Shown in pieces: positions 2-59,139 of a stretch of 64,000 nt of DNA. This DNA is from Candidatus Marithrix sp. Canyon 246. Lineage in GTDB: Bacteria > Pseudomonadota > Gammaproteobacteria > Beggiatoales > Beggiatoaceae. Within the stretch, counting starts at the first letter, position 1; each line of letters starts with the position of its first letter. Under the pieces are notes generated by a model that saw nothing but the letters and a program-made list of their open reading frames with translations, was not told the DNA's origin and searched no databases. Position numbers and translations under genes: made by a program. Where the stretch lies: contig NZ_MCBX01000004.1 in assembly GCF_001723685.1 (NCBI RefSeq), positions 124,001-188,000 of the forward strand, given 5' to 3'.

Positions 2-85
2 AATCTGGCTAAGAAGTGGTTTAAAAAAGCGTCTACACTTGGACATGCACAAGCACAACAGAACTTAGATGCTTTGCAGCATTGA
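2..85 (+). CDS. Sel1-repeat protein, C-terminal end only (partial)
   Basis: An open frame enters from the left edge and ends at TGA 83-85. The 27 visible residues contain AKKWFKKASTLGHAQAQQNL, which matches the end of a Sel1-like (TPR-related) repeat, a helical protein-interaction module. Nothing can be said about the rest of the protein. The stop codon lies exactly at the start of a 48-bp copy of the neighbouring phosphoribosyltransferase gene (84-131), so the gene end may itself be a junction. Confidence 0.6.
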   Translation, partial: NLAKKWFKKASTLGHAQAQQNLDALQH

Positions 86-131
86 AAACTGGTGGCAACA
101 ACAGTTCGCTTTTGGGCTTGACTGCCTTACA
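84..131 (+). repeat. Scar: copy of an internal 3' segment of the phosphoribosyltransferase gene
   Basis: These 48 bases repeat 970-1017 with one difference (GCT against GGT, Ala for Gly in the source frame). The source encodes ENWWQQQFGFGLDCLT near the C-terminus of the phosphoribosyltransferase. The copy is in the same orientation, has no gene around it, and is followed directly by an inverted repeat. Confidence 0.85.
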
Positions 132-147
132 AATTAATTATTTAATT

Positions 148-246
148 AGTACAACGAATTTAGAAATAAACTAATTAGTACATAGTTTTAGCAGTCATGC
201 AATTACTTCGTTACTTCGTTTCGTTTATTTCTAAATTCGTTGTACT
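148..246. repeat. TA-flanked inverted repeat, GTACAACGAATT family (copy a)
   Basis: Left arm 148-170 and right arm 224-246 are reverse complements over 23 bases starting AGTACAACGAATT. The centre holds tandem ACTTCGTT-type motifs that also occur, in the other orientation, in the copy at 7463-7563. Both ends are bordered by TA. The size and shape are those of a MITE-like element; no transposase is present in the window. Confidence 0.8.
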
Positions 247-261
247 ATAATATTATATTCT

Positions 262-375
262 ATGTGTGCTATAGCAGCTATATATAATTACCATTACGCC
301 GCCCCAGAAGTTAATCGCAAAGAATTGTGTGCAATTCGCGATCATATGTCTGCGAGAGGCCCTGATGGTAAATAA
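262..375 (+). pseudogene. Scar: first 37 codons of asnB followed by a stop
   Basis: Bases 262-372 repeat the first 111 bases of the asnB-like gene at 1184-1294, beginning with the same ATG and the catalytic Cys2. A TAA follows at 373-375. There are three differences, all third-position and all synonymous (Leu TTA/TTG, Ala GCT/GCA, Arg CGT/CGC). The copy lies upstream of the phosphoribosyltransferase gene, so that gene sits between two copies of the asnB start. Confidence 0.9.
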
Positions 376-390
376 ATATCTAAAAACAAA

Positions 391-1098
391 ATGATAATCC
401 GTTATACATGGAATACAGTTCCACTCGTGTGGATTCACAACAATGAGTCAGCAGTAAAGCAACACTATGCTTACCGCGCCGCCAAATCGGGAGATCCAAG
501 CTCGGCTTACATCTTAGTTAATTCCTTGCTGAATCCAATGATTGTTGAACAATTGGCGAAATCATACAATCAACAAAAGCCCATTCTAGTATCTGCTCAC
601 GCTGTAGAAAGAATGGGTGTTAATGCAATTCCCGAAGCATTGGCGGATGTTCTTGCTCAACTATTGGGTTGGACTACTGACAACAGCATTATACAAACCA
701 ACATCGTTGGACACACTGGAGCTGATGGCTTTTCCCGTCTGGCGAGGCAAGCAAGGTTCGATGGGAAGGTATTAGCTGGGTATGATTATTTGTTGGTTGA
801 TGATTTTGTCGGGCAAGGCGGAACCTTGGCAAATTTGCGGGCACATATCATACAAGGTAATGGCACAGTGTTGGGAGCAACCGTATTAACTGGAAAACCA
901 CACTCAGCAAATTTAGCTTTAACATCACAAACACTTGAATACTTGAGGTTGAAACATGGAGAACAACTTGAAAACTGGTGGCAACAACAGTTCGGTTTTG
1001 GGCTTGACTGCCTTACAGAGTCTGAAGCACGTTACTTGCTCAACACCCCGAATGTTGAACGCATCCGAAATAAAATTACTGAGGCAAGCCAAAGGTGA
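391..1098 (+). CDS. Phosphoribosyltransferase-domain protein
   Basis: The 235-residue protein has a type I phosphoribosyltransferase PRPP loop, YLLVDDFVGQGGTLANLR, at about residues 131-148: two acidic residues after a hydrophobic strand, then a Gly-rich turn. The substrate cannot be told from the sequence. No clear ribosome binding site precedes ATG 391, and a later start is possible. The gene lies between two copies of the asnB 5' end (262-372 and 1184-1294), and part of its own 3' region is copied at 84-131. It therefore looks like an inserted cassette, not a native member of the polysaccharide cluster. An overlapping shorter frame (956-1162) is probably spurious. Confidence 0.7.
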   Translation: MIIRYTWNTVPLVWIHNNESAVKQHYAYRAAKSGDPSSAYILVNSLLNPMIVEQLAKSYNQQKPILVSAHAVERMGVNAIPEALADVLAQLLGWTTDNSIIQTNIVGHTGADGFSRLARQARFDGKVLAGYDYLLVDDFVGQGGTLANLRAHIIQGNGTVLGATVLTGKPHSANLALTSQTLEYLRLKHGEQLENWWQQQFGFGLDCLTESEARYLLNTPNVERIRNKITEASQR

Positions 1099-1183
1099 GA
1101 TTGCACAACGAATTAATGAACTAGTAGCACAACAGAATATAACTCCAGTTAATCTAACTTAATATTGTATATTATTTAATAAT

Positions 1184-2473
1184 ATGTGTGCTATAGCAGC
1201 TATATATAATTACCATTACGCCGCCCCAGAAGTTAATCGCAAAGAATTATGTGCTATTCGTGATCATATGTCTGCGAGAGGCCCTGATGGTAAAGGAGCA
1301 TGGTTTTCTAAAAATGGCAAAATTGGTTTAGCCCACCAACGCTTGTCTATTATAGATATTAATGAGCGTGCTGCTCAACCTATGAGTAGCACTGATGGAC
1401 AGTGTGTTATCAGTTTTAATGGTGAAATTTATAATTATAAAGCATTACGCCAACAGCTTGAATCTCAAGGTATTCAATTTAGAACTCAATCTGATACCGA
1501 AGTTTTGCTGCATCTTTATAAACAAAAAGGTGTGGCTATGTTGTCAGAACTGAGGGGGATGTTTGCATTTGCACTATGGGATGCTAAGAAAAATAAACTC
1601 TTGCTGGCTCGTGATCCTTATGGTATAAAGCCACTGTATTACGCTGATGATGGTTGGACAGTACGAGTTGCTTCACAAGTCAAAGCTCTTTTAGCTGGTG
1701 GTAAAATATCCAGTTCCATTGAGCCTGCTGGCATTACTGGCTTTTTATTATTTGGCAGTGTTCCAGAACCTTATACGATTTACCAACAAATACGAGCGGT
1801 TCCAGCCGGCAGTTTTATCTGGGTGGATGAGATTGGTACACATACACCAGAGCATTACTTTTCTTTGGCGAAGGTTTTTTGTCAAGCGATTGAAAATCCT
1901 CAAGCATTCAATCAAGAGGCGGCTAGCGAGGCTTTATTAGATTCAGTGAGTCACCATTTAGTTGCAGATGTTCCTGTTGGTGCTTTTTTATCATCAGGAG
2001 TGGATTCAGGCGCATTAGTTGCCCTTATGAAAGATGCTGGACAAAAGGATATTCAAACTGTTACCTTAGCCTTTGAAGAATTTCAGCAACAACATAGAAA
2101 TGAGGCTCCTTTAGCAGCTGAGATAGCCAAAAGGTATGACACCCAACATACTACTCGAATTGTCACAGAAGCGGAATTTGTAGCGGAGCTACCCAAAATT
2201 CTAGCGGCTATGGATCAACCTTCTATTGATGGCATTAATACATGGTTTGTCAGCAAAGCTGCCAAAGAGCTTGGATTAAAAGTTGCTGTTTCAGGATTGG
2301 GGGGTGATGAATTATTTGGTGGTTATCCGGCATTTTTTGATATTCCCCGTTGGGTTAAACAATTATCTATGCCAGCAAAAATACCTTTTATAGGTGATAT
2401 AATTCAAAAACTAAGCACGACTTTTATTACTCCCTATAGTTCACTCAGCCCTAAAATGGCTGGAATGACATGA
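1184..2473 (+). CDS. asnB: Asparagine synthase-type glutamine amidotransferase, C-terminally truncated
   Basis: The protein has the N-terminal class II glutaminase domain (Met1 removed to expose Cys2, MCAIAAIYN; SARGPDG; FNGEIYNYKALR) and an ATP-pyrophosphatase domain (LSSGVDSGALVAL, then GLGGDELFGGYP). Homologues in exopolysaccharide clusters transfer amide groups to sugars or build asparagine, and are usually about 600-650 residues. This one ends after 429 residues at SSLSPKMAGMT, so roughly the last 200 residues of the synthetase domain are missing and the flippase starts 32 bases later. It may be inactive. Its 5' end is duplicated at 262-372. The glutaminase half looks intact. Confidence 0.8.
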   Translation: MCAIAAIYNYHYAAPEVNRKELCAIRDHMSARGPDGKGAWFSKNGKIGLAHQRLSIIDINERAAQPMSSTDGQCVISFNGEIYNYKALRQQLESQGIQFRTQSDTEVLLHLYKQKGVAMLSELRGMFAFALWDAKKNKLLLARDPYGIKPLYYADDGWTVRVASQVKALLAGGKISSSIEPAGITGFLLFGSVPEPYTIYQQIRAVPAGSFIWVDEIGTHTPEHYFSLAKVFCQAIENPQAFNQEAASEALLDSVSHHLVADVPVGAFLSSGVDSGALVALMKDAGQKDIQTVTLAFEEFQQQHRNEAPLAAEIAKRYDTQHTTRIVTEAEFVAELPKILAAMDQPSIDGINTWFVSKAAKELGLKVAVSGLGGDELFGGYPAFFDIPRWVKQLSMPAKIPFIGDIIQKLSTTFITPYSSLSPKMAGMT

Positions 2474-2505
2474 GGATATTTACTAAACTGGAATTGATAA
2501 ACTGA

Positions 2506-3834
2506 ATGGATAAAACGTTCATAATATCCCGTTCAAACTTTTCACGTTTCCAACGTTTAGGACGTGAATTGCTATGGGTGGGGTTAGGTCAATTTATGAC
2601 TGCCTTGGGTGTAATAGTAGGGATACGGCTGTTAACTGAGGTACTTCCACCAAATATTTATGGTGAAGTAGCACTGGGTATGACAATAGTGATGCTTTTC
2701 ATACAAGTGCTATTATCACCAATAGCTAAAGCTTCTTCGCGTTTTTTTAATCCTGCTCAAGAAGTTAAGCAGTTACCAGCGTTGTTGCATGGAATTCGCA
2801 AAATGTTAATTTATGTAACGGTTCTGTTGCTAGTTATTACAAATGTTGGCTTTTTTTTAGGATTATTAATATATGGATATTCACAATGGTTGTGGTTAGT
2901 ACTAGCTGCGTTTATTTTTGCATTATTATCAGGTTATAATTTAATACTGGATGGAATACAAAATGCCGCACGCCAACGCTTAATAGTGGCATGGCATCAA
3001 GGACTGGCATCATGGTTACGGTTTTTGAGCGCAGTGGGACTTATTGGAATTATTGGCTCGTTTAGCTATGTGGCTATGTGTGGATATGTTTTAGCGTCAC
3101 TGGTAGTTCTTGGATCACAGTTATGGTTTTTTAATCGCAAAATTATGGTGTTAAGTTTTGATAAATCAACAGTTATAGCTAGTGATATTAAAAACTGGAA
3201 CAAGCGGATGTTTAGTTATGCTTGGCCCATTGCCACATGGTCAATATTTATTTGGGCACAAGTAGCATCGGAACGTTGGGTATTGCAAATTTTTACTTCA
3301 ACACATGAAGTAGGTTTATATACTGTGCTATATCAACTTGGTTATTATCCAATTCCATTACTTTCTGGTATAATGTTACAATTTGTATTACCAATATTGT
3401 TCAAGCGTGCTGGTGATGGTTCTGATCAAGCACGTATAGAGCATACACATGTATTAATAAGTAGAATCGCGGTAGTGGGGATATGCATAACTTTCACTGG
3501 AATCTTGATTAGTTTTTGGCTGCATGAACTTATATTTAGTCTGTTAGTTGCTCCAGAATATCGAACAGTCTCATATTTACTCCCTCTCATGGTTTTATCA
3601 AGCGGCTTTTTCTCTGTTGGAGAAATTATTTCTCAAAAAATGATGACTAGTAATAAAACTCGTGACTTAATTGTACCAAAAATTGCCATCGCGCTATTAG
3701 GTATTGTACTTAATTTCATGGGGGCAAAATGGTTTGGCTTGATTGGTGTGGTTGGCGCAAGTGTCTGTCTTTCATTTTTGTATTTTGTATGGATCATATT
3801 GTTGGCTAGAATGAGATCACAATGTAGCAGTTAG
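2506..3834 (+). CDS. Wzx-type oligosaccharide flippase (MOP superfamily)
   Basis: This 442-residue, very hydrophobic protein has about 12 predicted membrane spans, starting around residues 25-45 (LLWVGLGQFMTALGVIVGIRLL). It fits the polysaccharide transporter (Wzx/RfbX) branch of the MOP exporters, which flip undecaprenyl-linked repeat units across the inner membrane. It begins 32 bases after the truncated asnB stop and is followed after 6 bases by a Wzy/WaaL-type membrane protein, a typical Wzx/Wzy pairing. Only the family, not the substrate, can be inferred. Confidence 0.8.
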   Translation: MDKTFIISRSNFSRFQRLGRELLWVGLGQFMTALGVIVGIRLLTEVLPPNIYGEVALGMTIVMLFIQVLLSPIAKASSRFFNPAQEVKQLPALLHGIRKMLIYVTVLLLVITNVGFFLGLLIYGYSQWLWLVLAAFIFALLSGYNLILDGIQNAARQRLIVAWHQGLASWLRFLSAVGLIGIIGSFSYVAMCGYVLASLVVLGSQLWFFNRKIMVLSFDKSTVIASDIKNWNKRMFSYAWPIATWSIFIWAQVASERWVLQIFTSTHEVGLYTVLYQLGYYPIPLLSGIMLQFVLPILFKRAGDGSDQARIEHTHVLISRIAVVGICITFTGILISFWLHELIFSLLVAPEYRTVSYLLPLMVLSSGFFSVGEIISQKMMTSNKTRDLIVPKIAIALLGIVLNFMGAKWFGLIGVVGASVCLSFLYFVWIILLARMRSQCSS

Positions 3835-43583: not shown

Positions 43584-43967
43584 ATGAAAATAACTAATTG
43601 TATGTGTGATAACAAAGATTATGGATTAGAAACACTTCTTGACTTAGATGGAGTGATTATAGATCAGGGAAATGGTTATTGGGTAAAATTTGAGGTGTCA
43701 AAAACAAAGGTTACAAAAGAACGTTCTCATGGGCTTCGATATAGCCTCACTCTTCATGATAAATATGGTAAACGACTCATGGGTTATGATAATGCTCATG
43801 CAGTAAAATTACCAAAGAAATATAAATACTCTGGTCGTATCATTGAATATGATCATTATCATCGTCATAGTTTAGATAATGGTATTCCCTATGAGTTCAA
43901 AGATCCTTATCAACTTATTCAAGATTTTTTTGAAAAAGTTGATGAAGTATTAAAGAAGCAGGAATGA
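43584..43967 (+). CDS. DUF6516-like protein, candidate toxin
   Basis: The 127-residue protein contains LDGVIIDQGNGYWVKFEVSK, LRYSLTLHDKYGKRLMGYDN, AHAVK and YDHYHRHSLDNGIPYEFKDP, then QLIQDFF. Charged and His-rich, it resembles the small DUF6516 family that occurs with a winged-helix partner, as here. It overlaps the next gene by 4 bases (ATGA). A toxin-antitoxin role is inferred from size, coupling and context, not from a known active site. Confidence 0.65.
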   Translation: MKITNCMCDNKDYGLETLLDLDGVIIDQGNGYWVKFEVSKTKVTKERSHGLRYSLTLHDKYGKRLMGYDNAHAVKLPKKYKYSGRIIEYDHYHRHSLDNGIPYEFKDPYQLIQDFFEKVDEVLKKQE

Positions 43968-44332
43968 TAGATATGAGTAACGAATATAAAGTACGTATTG
44001 GCATCATGCCACAAGAAAAAATAAGGGAAAGAATGTTGCTAATCGCAAAAGGAAGCTATAAACCAGAACCTAATGAACCAAAAATCTGGTTTACTTCCAT
44101 GCGTTCTTTAGCTGAAGTATTAAGCGATGAAAACCGTGCATTATTACACATTATTAAAGATACAAAACCCAATTCAATAAAAGAACTATCTGAAACCACA
44201 GGAAGAAAACAAAGTAACCTTTCCCGCACATTAAAAACACTATCAAGCTATGGTATTCTTGAGTTGATCAAAGAGAGCAAGCAAGTAAAACCTGTAGCTA
44301 AAGCGGTTGAATTTGAAATTTTAGCCGCTTAA
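43964..44332 (+). CDS. Winged helix-turn-helix regulator, candidate antitoxin
   Basis: This protein of up to 122 residues (ATG 43964 or 43973) contains SIKELSETTGRKQSNLSRTL and KTLSSYGILELIK, a MarR/ArsR-like winged helix. RSLAEVLSDENRALLHIIKD precedes it. It is the likely DNA-binding antitoxin or autoregulator of the DUF6516 gene. Its stop overlaps the convergent acyltransferase end by 4 bases. Confidence 0.75.
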   Translation: MIDMSNEYKVRIGIMPQEKIRERMLLIAKGSYKPEPNEPKIWFTSMRSLAEVLSDENRALLHIIKDTKPNSIKELSETTGRKQSNLSRTLKTLSSYGILELIKESKQVKPVAKAVEFEILAA

Positions 44333-48333: not shown

Positions 48334-49056
48334 CTATATTCCTTGATAACGCACACCGGGATTTAACTTCATATCAGCACGTAAAGCAGTACTACTTACT
48401 TCAGCTAATTTCTTAGAAATTTCACTTTCAGGATCTTTTATATCCCCAAAGATCATAGCTTTACCACAGGCTTCTACACAAGCTGGCTTTTCACCCTTAT
48501 CTACTTTATGCACACAAAAAGTACAGCTTTCTACAGTACCTTTACCGCGTGGAGAATGTGGTTTTTGGTTTTCTAAGTTTTCATGAACAAAAGATCGTGC
48601 TTTATAAGGGCAAGCCATCATACAATAACGACAACCAATACAAGTATGCTTATCTACTAATACAATTCCATCAGCGCGTTTAAATGAGGCTCCAGTTGGG
48701 CAAACATCAACACAAGGTGGGTGTTCACAATGTTGACATAACATCGGCAAAGTTGTTTCTTTACCAGTTTGCTTATCACGTAAACCTACTTTACGTATCC
48801 ATTGTGGTGCAATTTCAGCACGAACATTATCATTTAAACCGTGTTCTTTGGTACAAGCATTCACACAGTCATTACAACCATCAGCACATTTAGTAGTATC
48901 AATCAACATACCCCAACGCACTTTAGAAGTGACTGCTTCACCATCAGGTTTAGCCTGAGAAACACTATAAAATAACATGCCGGGGGCAACTGTTGTTAAT
49001 CCGGCAACTGTTGCAGTTTTTTTAAGAAAATCACGGCGATTTTGAGTCGGTGACAT
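48334..49056 (-). CDS. dsrO: DsrO, periplasmic iron-sulfur protein with Tat signal
   Basis: The 240-residue protein begins with a twin-arginine signal, NRRDFLKKTATVAGLTTVAP. Four ferredoxin-type cysteine groups follow (CADGCNDCVNACTKEHGL, CQHCEHPPCVDVCPTG, CIGCRYCMMACPYKAR, CTFCVHKVDKGEKPACVEAC). It carries electrons between DsrJ and DsrP on the periplasmic side. It is separated from dsrJ by an extra gene (49114-50265) that is not part of other dsr operons I know. Confidence 0.93.
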   Translation of the reverse strand: MSPTQNRRDFLKKTATVAGLTTVAPGMLFYSVSQAKPDGEAVTSKVRWGMLIDTTKCADGCNDCVNACTKEHGLNDNVRAEIAPQWIRKVGLRDKQTGKETTLPMLCQHCEHPPCVDVCPTGASFKRADGIVLVDKHTCIGCRYCMMACPYKARSFVHENLENQKPHSPRGKGTVESCTFCVHKVDKGEKPACVEACGKAMIFGDIKDPESEISKKLAEVSSTALRADMKLNPGVRYQGI

Positions 49057-49113
49057 TAATATTTACTCTCTCAAATAACCCCCTATCTGTAAAGATAAGG
49101 AGAATAGATTAAA

Positions 49114-50265
49114 TTAAAATTCAATCCATTGATTTAATAATTCATCTAACATTTGCTTATTAAATGCTAGTTGATTACCTATATTTAGGTTCTTCCATAA
49201 TTTCCAATGCAGATTGTCCTTAGAATCTTTAATCAATAACATCATATGTTTATGACCATCATCATCAGGAGCAATATGTGTAACATCAATTCTACCGATT
49301 GCACCTATGAAACCAATTTCCATTGGTTGAAATACAATCTTATGACCACCCAGAATATCTAATTCCAGAGCATTTACTTCATAATTACCAACATCTTCAT
49401 CATGTAGTTTAACCTTACTAGTACTAAAAGATATATAGCCATTTTTACTATAATCATTTAGCCATGTTTTTATAGTTTTATGCAAACCATTTACTTCTTT
49501 CGCCCATACTTGTTTCTCAGAGCCTGTCTTTACAGAAGTTTTTGGTTTATTGGCAGTAGCCATTTTTTTGAATTTATCTGCAAGTGTTGCGGATCGCTTA
49601 GATGTTGCTGCAGGCTTTTTAGCCACCTTGGCTGCAACAACTTTCTTAGGTGCTGCAACAACTTTCTTAGGTGCAGCAACAACTTTTTTAGGTGCTGCAA
49701 CAACTTTCTTCTTAGGTGCAGCTTTAGCTTTTGGCTTTGCTTTTGGTTTTGCAGCAGCAAATATAGTATCCCATGCAGACTTAGTTTTATTTTTTGCCTT
49801 GAAATAATTATTTTTTTCAGCAAATTTCATGATCTGGCTATTGATAGTAATTTTTTCAAATTCTTTCAAAGCAGCTACATTATTTTCAAAAATTTTAGCT
49901 TCAGCAGTAACATTAAAGAGTTTCTTTCTACCAAAGATAGCTACGCCTTTACCAATTTCAGTAAAACCAAGTTTTTTTAAAGACTCCAAATATGAATCTA
50001 TAGCAGTGTAAATTTTTTTATATTCCGTTTCAGAAACACCCAGCATTTCATTCATGCGGTTAATTCTTGAAGCTGTATGGAATTTTTCAATCTTGGTTTC
50101 AAAACGCATACGCTTTTTATTAAAGCCCCATAAAAACAATCCTTCATTAAGAGGATAAACTTTATCATCAGGGATTAAACATGAAAATCCTTCATTAAAA
50201 CGAAAACCGTGTAGGTCTATAATTTTTATTGCAAATTTTTCAACTTGTGTTTCAAACTCTGGCAT
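49114..50265 (-). CDS. Unrecognised protein with Lys/Ala/Pro-rich repeat linker, inserted in the dsr operon
   Basis: The 383-residue protein starts at ATG 50265 (GGAGA five bases upstream; a longer frame from 50325 adds 20 residues). The N-terminal region (about 1-165) is charged and alpha/beta in character. A low-complexity linker at about 168-245 is built of repeated A-A-P-K-K-V-V units, histone-H1-like and strongly basic. The C-terminal domain (about 260-383) is compact, with LELDILGGHKIVFQPMEIGF and IGRIDVTHIAPDDDGHKHMM. No known domain is recognised. The linker could bind nucleic acid or polyphosphate. It lies 57 bases before dsrO and 211 bases after dsrJ, same strand. Confidence 0.7.
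   Translation of the reverse strand: MPEFETQVEKFAIKIIDLHGFRFNEGFSCLIPDDKVYPLNEGLFLWGFNKKRMRFETKIEKFHTASRINRMNEMLGVSETEYKKIYTAIDSYLESLKKLGFTEIGKGVAIFGRKKLFNVTAEAKIFENNVAALKEFEKITINSQIMKFAEKNNYFKAKNKTKSAWDTIFAAAKPKAKPKAKAAPKKKVVAAPKKVVAAPKKVVAAPKKVVAAKVAKKPAATSKRSATLADKFKKMATANKPKTSVKTGSEKQVWAKEVNGLHKTIKTWLNDYSKNGYISFSTSKVKLHDEDVGNYEVNALELDILGGHKIVFQPMEIGFIGAIGRIDVTHIAPDDDGHKHMMLLIKDSKDNLHWKLWKNLNIGNQLAFNKQMLDELLNQWIEF
49635..49735 (-). repeat. Tandem 24-base repeat encoding AAPKKVVA
   Basis: At least four copies of the unit GGTGCTGCAACAACTTTCTT (plus four bases), read on the plus strand, translate on the minus strand to A-A-P-K-K-V-V. Copies differ at only a few positions, so copy number could vary between strains by slippage. 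Confidence 0.8.
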
Positions 50266-50476
50266 TCTTTTCTCCAAAACAAAGACTATTAAAAAGCATT
50301 GATTTTTTATCCTGTCAGTAATCAATGTGGGCTTTATCTTAAAAGCAAATTAACAGAAGTGCAAGCAAAACCTTGTGATTAGTTCTAATTTAATGAGGAT
50401 GGGGTGATGATAATTCAAAGGATAAAGTTAATAAAATCAATAGCAAGCGAGGCTAATCGCTTGCTATATTTTTTAT

Positions 50477-50851
50477 TTATTTTTTCTCTGGTTTGCTAGC
50501 ATGACATTGAAAACAATCAATCGTTACTGCCGCATAATTATGACAACTTCGACAGAAATGTTCTGAGCCTTCATTAACATTAGGATAATTTCCATCATCA
50601 TCTGCTGTAACATGACAATTAATACATTCAATCAGACTATGTTGTGTGGTACGTACACCACTATGCATAGTATCATTACGATGATGCTTTAGAAAATGCC
50701 CATGATAACGGCGCATAATTTCAATTGGTTCTACACAAGATTGTTCAGTAGAAAATTGTTTATTAGCTTTTGGTGGGTTTGGTGTTTCAACAGCATTAAC
50801 AGCCACACTTAATAATAACCCAAATCCTATTTGGCTTATTCTTAAATTCAT
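50477..50851 (-). CDS. dsrJ: DsrJ, triheme cytochrome c
   Basis: The 124-residue protein has a signal sequence (MNLRISQIGFGLLLSVAVNA) and three CxxCH heme sites: CINCHV, CRSCHN and CFQCHA. SCVEPIEIMRRYHGHFLKHH contains the conserved Cys that, in Allochromatium vinosum DsrJ, is an axial ligand of one heme with unusual His/Cys coordination. It is periplasmic and part of DsrMKJOP. Its ATG overlaps the dsrL stop codon by one base. Confidence 0.93.
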   Translation of the reverse strand: MNLRISQIGFGLLLSVAVNAVETPNPPKANKQFSTEQSCVEPIEIMRRYHGHFLKHHRNDTMHSGVRTTQHSLIECINCHVTADDDGNYPNVNEGSEHFCRSCHNYAAVTIDCFQCHASKPEKK

Positions 50852-57885: not shown

Positions 57886-59139
57886 TTAAGCAGCTTTTTC
57901 TTCAGCTTTACGTTCATTCCATTTATCAGCTTCTTCTTCCCATGTATCAATTCTAACATAGGAAGATTGACGAGGTTCTGATATCATATTTGGATCAACT
58001 TCTAAGCCAATACCTTCAAGGAAGTTGACTAAACCAATACGTTCAATCATTTCCCCAGTACGTTCATGTTCTAAAGCATTTTCAGCAAAGAAATCAATAG
58101 TTTCTTCAGCTATTTCAGTGATACGCTCATAATCTTCTTCGGTTTCTAATTTCATGAATGGTACCACAACTGTACCCATTAAATCACCGATTTTAAGAGT
58201 ACGTTTACCACCCATTAAAATAGTAACACCTTTATCATCACCGGGAGATAAAGCTTTAGTCATAACGTTAACGCAATGCATACAACGCACACAGTTACGA
58301 TTATCAACAGCTAAAGTATTATCATCATTTAATGATAATGCTTGAGTAGGACAACGACTAATGACGTTATCAACTACATATTTACTGCCATTTTTAGCTA
58401 CAAAAGCCTTGACTTCTTCTTGATCGACTTTCATGTCGTCACGCCAAGTACCAATGACAGCCATATCAGCGCGTTCGATTGCATTCATACAATCGTTAGG
58501 ACAACCTGATACTTTAAATTTAAATTTGTAAGGTAGAGCTGGACGATGCATATCATCCAAGAAGTTATTTACCAAAGTACGAAGAATCTTTTGTTCATTC
58601 GCGCAAGATTGTTCGCAACGTGCTGCACCTACACATGACATACCTGTACGTACTGCTGGACCTGCTCCACCTAAGTCAAAACCGATTTCATTGAAATCAT
58701 TAAATGCGTCTTGAACTTTCTCAGTACTAGCACCTTGGAACATAATGTCGCCACTTTGTCCATGAAATGCTATTAAGCCTGAACCATGTTTTTCCCAAAT
58801 ATCACACAAATTACGCATGAGTTTGGTGTCATAATGCATACCTGCTGGTGGTTGAACACGTAAGGTATGGAATTCTTTAGATGCTGGATATTCAGCAGCA
58901 ACCTCAGAAAAACGAGGGATAATCCCGCCACCATAACCAATAACACCTACAGTACCGCCTTTCCAATAACCTTTACGGGTTTTGTAGGAATGCTCTAATT
59001 GACCTAATAGATCAACTACCATATCTTGATATGTAAGGCTCTCATCATTTGCTAGACGTTTTAACCCAGTCACAAAACTAGGCCAAGGACCACTTTCCAA
59101 TTGATCTAGCATTGGGGTATCGTGCATTGCTTTACCCAT
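57886..59139 (-). CDS. dsrA: DsrA, dissimilatory sulfite reductase alpha subunit
   Basis: The 417-residue protein has siroheme-[4Fe-4S] ligands in GMSCVGAARCEQSCANEQK and VSGCPNDCMNAIERADM, and an inserted ferredoxin domain with NRNCVRCMHCVNVMT. The start has AAGGAG seven bases upstream. It is the first gene of the operon. The accompanying dsrEFH and dsrL indicate the reverse, sulfur-oxidising enzyme. Confidence 0.97.
   Translation of the reverse strand: MGKAMHDTPMLDQLESGPWPSFVTGLKRLANDESLTYQDMVVDLLGQLEHSYKTRKGYWKGGTVGVIGYGGGIIPRFSEVAAEYPASKEFHTLRVQPPAGMHYDTKLMRNLCDIWEKHGSGLIAFHGQSGDIMFQGASTEKVQDAFNDFNEIGFDLGGAGPAVRTGMSCVGAARCEQSCANEQKILRTLVNNFLDDMHRPALPYKFKFKVSGCPNDCMNAIERADMAVIGTWRDDMKVDQEEVKAFVAKNGSKYVVDNVISRCPTQALSLNDDNTLAVDNRNCVRCMHCVNVMTKALSPGDDKGVTILMGGKRTLKIGDLMGTVVVPFMKLETEEDYERITEIAEETIDFFAENALEHERTGEMIERIGLVNFLEGIGLEVDPNMISEPRQSSYVRIDTWEEEADKWNERKAEEKAA

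What the first reader, a model, noticed from the sequence alone, without database searches (positions are those of the whole stretch)
49114..50265. Lys/Ala/Pro-repeat protein embedded in the dsr operon between dsrJ and dsrO
dsrJ and dsrO encode partner subunits and are normally adjacent. Here a 383-residue protein of no known family with an H1-like basic linker separates them, same strand, with its own ribosome binding site and longer gaps (211 and 57 bases). It has no signal peptide. It could be a DNA- or polyphosphate-binding protein coexpressed with sulfur oxidation, or an insertion.
Basis: partly seen in the sequence, partly recalled or inferred. Interest (0 to 1): 0.6.

Follow-up and report, generated by a model that had tools for sequence, protein, structure and literature searches.

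The report
Toxin-partner domain in sulfur-oxidation operon
In part of a family of large sulfur bacteria, an undescribed gene sits at one fixed place inside the sulfur-oxidation gene cluster; half of its protein is related to the companion protein of a suspected RNA-cutting toxin, so a piece of a mobile defence-type module seems to have been put to work beside core energy metabolism, though its actual job is unknown.

Summary
The gene is real and is not a recent insertion. A 383-residue ORF lies between dsrJ and dsrO. Its N domain occurs in 21 of 42 held genomes of the family (Beggiatoaceae by its one named relative). All 22 loci lie between dsrJ and dsrO, one split over two contigs. Samples of 274 class and 398 phylum genomes gave it only in the own genome, bar one broken chance-like hit. 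Selection is purifying.

The protein has three parts: a lineage-specific N domain with a cysteine (C29) invariant in 17 of 17; a positively charged repeat linker without conserved sequence; and a C domain homologous (hhalign E 1.9e-24) to a stand-alone protein followed, in 21 of 31 loci, by an HEPN-like gene with an Rx4H motif. That pair also occurs on small Klebsiella plasmids and in a CRISPR III-B operon. No HEPN-like gene lies by the dsr gene.

Best reading: a domesticated module partner fused to a new cysteine domain, acting as a cytosolic regulator or adaptor. The C-domain homology is well supported; the mechanism is inferred.

The parts
49114..50265 (-). The gene: 383-aa two-domain protein between dsrJ and dsrO
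   Evidence: 22 of 22 orthologous loci at this place, one split over two contigs
49771..50265 (-). N domain (residues 1-165), lineage-specific; 35 columns invariant in 17 orthologues
   Evidence: alignment A1; found in 21 of 42 family genomes; in 274 class genomes only the own; in 398 phylum genomes the own and one broken hit at E 0.0055
50179..50181 (-). Codon of Cys29, invariant in 17 of 17 orthologues and the only cysteine in 15 of 17
49555..49770 (-). Basic Lys/Ala/Pro linker (about residues 166-237), positively charged but not conserved in sequence or length among orthologues
49631..49710 (-). 21-bp tandem repeat, 3.8 copies, coding the KKVVAAP units of the linker
49117..49554 (-). C domain (residues 238-383), homologous to stand-alone partners of HEPN-like proteins
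50271..50275 (-). Ribosome binding site GGAGA; the same motif precedes the start in 13 of 17 orthologues (not in L045, L051, L052, L055)
50440..50467 (-). Hairpin (11-pair stem) with T-rich tail in the dsrJ-gene gap
   Evidence: background of such hairpins is high
49079..49102 (-). Hairpin (10-pair stem) in the gene-dsrO gap; not clearly beyond shuffles here (4 of 60 as strong)
50477..50851 (-). dsrJ, upstream neighbour
   Evidence: best hit, below the model's cut-off
48334..49056 (-). dsrO, downstream neighbour
   Evidence: above cut-off

Best explanation
The gene is a long-kept accessory of the rDsr locus in one subclade of the family. It was made by joining a new N domain, through a fast-changing positively charged linker, to a C domain related to the upstream partner protein of a two-gene HEPN-like (probably toxin-antitoxin or abortive-infection) module; no HEPN gene stands at this place. 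Most likely working: a cytosolic regulator or adaptor. The N domain, with its invariant cysteine and a set of invariant polar residues (H19, D33, E41, R54, E56, T57, H63, R67, K106), reads a redox or sulfur signal or meets an rDsr partner; the linker and C domain carry this to a nucleic acid or to a protein surface. Shown here: position, clade, purifying selection, homology of the C domain, invariance of C29. Inferred: HEPN identity and toxin-antitoxin nature of the module, direction of descent (module first), single origin, and every step of the working.
For: 22 of 22 loci in 21 of 42 family genomes lie between dsrJ and dsrO (G029 split over two contigs). On a dsrK+O+P tree the 18 gene-bearing rows (17 genomes) fall in one 21-row clade (100/99). 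dN/dS against Ca. Marithrix BB16 (YN00): N 0.048/0.51, C 0.059/0.38; for scale dsrO 0.030/0.31. Profile of the dsr C domains against stand-alone proteins only: hhalign probability 99.6, E 1.9e-24; the dsr-only profile finds stand-alone ORFs at E down to 9e-20 with no reversed decoy. The dsr C domains group together at SH-aLRT 98 on a long stem. Of 31 loci fetched by their C domain (duplicates left out), an HEPN-profile ORF follows or overlaps in 21. Rx4H stands in 37 of 39 distinct HEPN-profile hits by a loose pattern, one of them (L169) doubtful. Linker net positive in 17 of 17. C29 invariant in 17 of 17.
Against: HEPN membership of the partner rests on a motif and on Pfam hits below cut-off; for one member a non-HEPN model scores better (tRNA-synt_2b, E 1.4e-4, also below cut-off), and the PDB profile search named no HEPN protein. 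10 of 31 C-domain loci show no HEPN ORF next to them. AlphaFold with the two sequences allowed gave pLDDT 36 (N) and 58 (C), and no PDB fold match for the C model at E 0.001. Low cysteine content alone is not rare: 2 of the other 25 window ORFs of 350 aa or more have at most one. The dsr tree needs at fewest two changes, that is two gains; a single origin needs one gain and two losses. Gene-tree against dsr-tree agreement was not tested. The C-domain tree is unrooted. 9 of 21 gene-bearing genomes have no HEPN match at E 1e-5.
Confidence: 0.4

Rival explanations
1. Nucleoid-like or polyphosphate-binding protein: the basic linker binds DNA or polyphosphate and the two globular ends only dimerise or anchor it.
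For: Linker net charge positive in 17 of 17, +11 to +29 per 100 residues; no signal segment by eye.
Against: Linker of only 47 residues and net +8 in L051, mixed acidic-basic repeats in L050, L052, L055. The globular ends, not the linker, carry the conservation. No linker-histone or other DNA-binding family above cut-off.
Confidence: 0.2
2. True subunit or sulfur carrier of the rDsr pathway: C29 takes up a persulfide from the DsrEFH/DsrC relay or from DsrL and the protein docks on DsrMK.
For: Invariant cysteine and fixed place among dsr genes.
Against: 15 of 32 family genomes with dsrO lack the gene, as do the 5 outgroup genomes with dsrO; no sulfurtransferase family hit. dsrL itself is missing between dsrK and dsrJ in several gene-bearing loci.
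Confidence: 0.15
3. Still an antitoxin: the C domain neutralises HEPN-like toxins encoded elsewhere in the genome, and its place in a much-needed operon secures supply.
For: C domain homologous to the module partner; 12 of 21 gene-bearing genomes have HEPN-profile matches against 3 of 21 others.
Against: 9 of 21 gene-bearing genomes have no HEPN match at E 1e-5, among them the close relative G001; the dsr C domains are far from the module partners (stem 0.92 changes per column).
Confidence: 0.1
4. A passenger: a fused remnant that hitch-hikes in the operon without a role.
For: These genomes hold many hairpins in dsr gaps; Thiomargarita is rich in mobile elements (PMC4853749, passages).
Against: Purifying selection on both domains and 22 of 22 retained places, even where the gaps reach 1.4 and 3.1 kb.
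Confidence: 0.05

Closest known systems
Module without a curated family found here: C-domain protein followed by HEPN-like protein (L024-L028, L030-L034, L036, L123, L124, L163-L166, L168-L170)
   Same: C domain homologous over 133 aligned columns, with a shared W...W...GxxGRxD...W pattern
   Different: The dsr protein carries an extra N domain and linker and has no HEPN-like gene next to it
MAE_28990/MAE_18760-like, RiboL-PSP and Apea HEPN families (PF18737, PF18735, PF18739; PMC3710099, passages)
   Same: Some of the module's second proteins hit these models below cut-off and they carry Rx4H; PMC3710099 describes MAE_18760 genes paired with a postulated ParA/Soj-like antitoxin
   Different: Below cut-off; no ParA/Soj family was hit by the C domain; the dsr protein itself has no HEPN-profile hit
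rDsr cluster dsrABEFHCMKLJOP
   Same: The gene sits inside it in all bearers found
   Different: Absent from 15 of 32 family genomes with dsrO and from the 5 outgroup genomes with dsrO
Lysine-rich histone H1-like / AlgP-like tails (named from recall)
   Same: Lys/Ala/Pro repeats, net positive
   Different: No H1 globular domain hit; repeats not conserved

Membership tests
Partner (C-domain) family of the HEPN-like module | Homologous C domain | tested here: met
   hhalign E 1.9e-24; hmmsearch with dsr-only profile, no reversed decoy
Partner (C-domain) family of the HEPN-like module | HEPN-like gene directly downstream | tested here: not met
   No HEPN-profile hit in the dsr loci or the window; dsrO follows. 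The feature itself holds in 21 of 31 stand-alone loci
Partner (C-domain) family of the HEPN-like module | Stand-alone protein of about 150-200 aa | tested here: not met
   348-571 aa with N domain and linker
Partner (C-domain) family of the HEPN-like module | Neutralises or controls its HEPN-like partner | not testable with these tools
   needs expression tests
HEPN superfamily (for the module's second protein) | Rx4-6H motif | tested here: met
   R-x4-H invariant in 9 of 9; 37 of 39 by a loose pattern, of which L169 is doubtful
HEPN superfamily (for the module's second protein) | Match to a curated HEPN model above cut-off | tested here: not met
   best 19.4 bits against 26.8 for PF18737
HEPN superfamily (for the module's second protein) | All-helical HEPN fold and RNase activity | not tested
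Histone H1-like DNA-binding protein | Basic Lys/Ala/Pro-rich tail | tested here: met
   net positive in 17 of 17; Pro and Ala content varies
Histone H1-like DNA-binding protein | Linker-histone or other DNA-binding domain | tested here: not met
   no such Pfam hit above cut-off
rDsr component | Conserved place in the dsr cluster | tested here: met
   22 of 22 loci, one split over two contigs
rDsr component | Present wherever the pathway is | tested here: not met
   17 of 32 family genomes with dsrO, 0 of 5 outside
rDsr component | Co-transcription with dsr genes | not testable with these tools
   hairpins in the gaps are near background

The most novel reading that the evidence does not exclude
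Large sulfur bacteria have domesticated the partner protein of a mobile RNase-toxin module and wired it into the sulfur-oxidation operon, where a new cysteine domain senses sulfur or redox state and the former module domain, with a charged linker, controls RNA or DNA, so that core energy metabolism and a defence-derived RNA switch are joined in one protein.
Probability: 0.2. Interest if true: 0.75.

Novelty: new variant of a known kind. Interest (0 to 1): 0.5.

Why it matters
The dsr cluster is among the best-studied gene sets of sulfur oxidation (from general knowledge). A fixed extra gene in it, kept through half of the held genomes of one family, points to a step or control that the known pathway lacks in these bacteria. 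The same work brings out a two-gene HEPN-like module for which no curated family scored above cut-off, present on small plasmids and in a CRISPR III-B operon, and shows its partner domain joined to a metabolic locus. Both can be tested with genes of uncultured bacteria expressed in laboratory strains.

Tried and rejected
Recent insertion: rejected (22 of 22 places, selection). Own transcription unit judged from hairpins: hairpins beat shuffles (at most 3 of 60) in 12 of 17 dsrJ-gene gaps and 11 of 17 gene-dsrO gaps, gaps cut at 400 bases, but also (at most 2 of 40) in 24 of 38 control gaps of the same clusters, so nothing follows. N domain as a hidden HEPN or a copy of the C domain: hhalign finds no relation. 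Relic of the gene in clusters that lack it: none in the six gaps searched by tblastn nor as ORFs in the three largest. Structure of N and C domains: models too poor to interpret. Viral-contig relatives of the N domain: none; phage records with the whole protein: none. Known family for the N domain: only scattered weak hits. Pfam gave nothing above cut-off for the stand-alone C domains or their HEPN-like partners. Rfam at gathering scores: nothing in the window, L056, L046, L052.

Full report
What is there. A 383-residue ORF (49114-50265, minus strand, ATG, GGAGA beginning ten bases upstream) lies between dsrJ and dsrO with gaps of 211 and 57 bases. It hits no Pfam, NCBIfam or PADLOC family above cut-off. 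dsrJ, dsrO and dsrP were checked against NCBIfam; the other dsr labels are from recall of sequence and order. The window is part of contig C40 of a 3.24-Mb genome.

Distribution. With the whole protein, 17 of 57 genomes (36 of the family, 21 outside) hold a relative with both domains, all 17 in the family (my count; the tool's tally of 24 at E 1 includes C-domain-only and chance matches). dsrO at E 1e-60 is in 32 of the 36 family genomes and 5 of the 21 others. The N-domain profile A1 finds 21 of 42 family genomes, 22 loci. In a class sample of 274 it finds only the own genome; in a phylum sample of 398 it finds the own genome and one hit at E 0.0055 with stops inside, which I take as chance. 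G057 and G062 lack it although other species of their genera have it; they are 87% and 52% complete, and dsrO was not sought in them.

Position. All 22 loci have dsrJ upstream and dsrO downstream (for the larger stretches, for the short loci, for G060 and G061). In G029 the gene is cut by contig ends, with dsrJ and the N part on one contig and the C part and dsrO on another. In the 17 loci measured, gaps run from 176 to 1391 bases on the dsrJ side and from 54 to 3093 on the dsrO side, so the gene stayed in place although the gaps changed. Of the 15 family genomes with dsrO and without the gene, 13 show both dsrJ and dsrO on the fetched stretch, with gaps of -4 to 885 bases; two stretches have no dsrJ hit; five outgroup genomes have gaps of -8 to 49. 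No ORF of the family stands in the three largest gaps, and tblastn into six gaps finds no relic.

Descent. On a tree of dsrK, dsrO and dsrP (38 rows), the 18 gene-bearing rows (17 genomes) lie in a clade of 21 rows (support 100/99) with G011, G003 and G027 lacking the gene. The fewest changes are two, that is two gains, one on the way to G007 and one at the base of the 17 other rows; a single gain needs three changes, with losses in G011 and in G003+G027. The same place and the same three-part build favour one origin, but this is inference, and transfer of the stretch is not excluded. Against L056 the N domain has dN 0.048 and dS 0.51, the C domain 0.059 and 0.38, the whole gene 0.098 and 0.48; dsrO has 0.030 and 0.31 (YN00). 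The gene is under purifying selection; the higher whole-gene dN implies that the linker changes fastest.

Anatomy. The N domain (A1, 17 rows) has mean column identity 70% and 35 invariant columns; the C domain (A2) has 60% and 12. Cys29 is invariant in 17 of 17 and the only cysteine in 15 of 17; for scale, 2 of the other 25 window ORFs of 350 aa or more also have at most one cysteine, so the invariance is the point, not the low count. The linker is net positive in 17 of 17 rows (+8 to +52) but runs from 47 to 274 residues with unrelated repeats; in the window part of it is a 21-bp tandem repeat of 3.8 copies. 'H1-like' therefore describes charge, not descent.

The C domain. Stand-alone relatives of the C domain occur in many copies in the family (27 of 42 genomes have a C-domain match, dsr copies included, up to 11 matches in one genome) and thinly elsewhere (19 of 398 phylum genomes including the own; 3 of 274 class genomes, two of them of the family). 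Because profile A3 mixes both kinds, I tested them apart: dsr-only A2 against stand-alone-only A7 gives probability 99.6 and E 1.9e-24, the N domain against A7 gives nothing, and the A2 profile finds stand-alone ORFs with no hit to reversed decoys. In a quick tree of 65 C domains (67 before near-copies were dropped) the dsr copies form one group (SH-aLRT 98; the one row labelled solo inside it, L054, is the split G029 copy) on a long stem; the root is not known and several stand-alone rows have long branches.

The module. Stand-alone C genes are typically followed by a gene of about 180 codons, overlapping by 4 to 11 bases in the ten family pairs L024, L025, L027, L028, L030-L034 and L036 (8 bases in seven of them) and by 8 on the Klebsiella plasmids. 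The aligned partners (9 rows, A4) share RxWxAHGRY, an Rx4H motif as in HEPN RNases (the motif's meaning is from recall). Of 31 loci fetched by their C domain, duplicates left out, an HEPN-profile ORF follows or overlaps in 21; in L023 and L030 it is truncated; L029, L035, L037, L120, L121, L125, L167, L171, L172 and L173 show none within the fetched stretch, which is short in L167 and L172. Many more C-domain matches were not looked at for neighbours. Pfam hits to HEPN_MAE_28990, HEPN_RiboL-PSP and HEPN_Apea are all below cut-off, and for some members other models score better, also below cut-off; HEPN identity is an inference. One module (L033) lies among type III-B genes cas10/cmr2 and cmr4. 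The same pair lies on Klebsiella and Raoultella plasmids, small ones and larger ones (17 records with the C match, 18 with the partner; layout seen in two). No HEPN-profile hit lies in the dsr loci or the window.

What it may do. The HEPN-like partner is missing next to the dsr gene, and 9 of 21 gene-bearing genomes have no HEPN match at E 1e-5, so a plain antitoxin role is not general, though 12 of 21 bearers against 3 of 21 others do have such matches. The strong constraint on the N domain, its invariant cysteine and polar residues, and the fixed place in a sulfur pathway make a sensing or adaptor role likelier to me than a merely architectural one. This part is inference. Structure could not help: with the two sequences that were eligible, pLDDT was 36 and 58 and no PDB fold match of the C model reached E 0.001; the N model was not searched.

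Literature. I read passages only: PMC4853749 (Thiomargarita; reports a group I intron in dsrA and lists dsr genes; the words dsrJ and dsrP do not occur on their own), PMC3710099 (HEPN survey), PMC4971068 (Marithrix; lists dsr genes), PMC11172852 (Beggiatoaceae genomes; lists dsr genes, no extra gene in the passages) and PMC7159879. Searches for dsrJ/dsrO with Beggiatoa, for dsr gene order, for the phrase 'between dsrJ and dsrO', and for toxin-antitoxin with HEPN or Beggiatoaceae gave listings whose titles and abstract starts do not describe this gene; most of the listed papers were not opened, and the library lacks most subscription journals.

Verdict. The new result is that a domain of the partner family of a mobile HEPN-like module is a fixed part of the rDsr locus in one clade of these sulfur bacteria.

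Noticed in passing
L056 86-2362 (dsrA), also L046 and L052: dsrA is split by an insert in these relatives; in L056 two group I intron matches below Rfam's gathering score (E 4e-9 and 1.3e-8) lie at the two ends of the insert, around or overlapping an ORF of 246 aa; the window's dsrA (57886-59139) is uninterrupted. A dsrA group I intron is reported in Thiomargarita (PMC4853749, passages).
   Followed up: partly
L023 4909-5651 (own genome, contig C1): Apparent remnant of a C-domain/HEPN-like pair: a stop inside the C-domain match and only the end of the HEPN-like gene left. A second, diverged pair stands on contig C34 (L123, L139).
   Followed up: partly
window 43584-44332: Probable TumE-type toxin gene with a winged-helix gene directly after it (Pfam TumE E 7.6e-8; HVO_A0114 E 5e-20).
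   Followed up: no
L046, L049-L053, L055, L175: dsrL is not between dsrK and dsrJ in these relatives; whether it lies elsewhere was not checked.
   Followed up: no
L046 213-2875 and L047 12811-15683: Two tandem dsrP-like genes.
   Followed up: no
L033 2809-8195: C-domain/HEPN-like pair sits inside a type III-B CRISPR operon between cmr4 and cas10/cmr2.
   Followed up: partly
dsr gaps in L038-L055: Strong hairpins in many intergenic gaps of these clusters (24 of 38 control gaps beat shuffles); perhaps MITE-like elements, as reported for Thiomargarita.
   Followed up: partly
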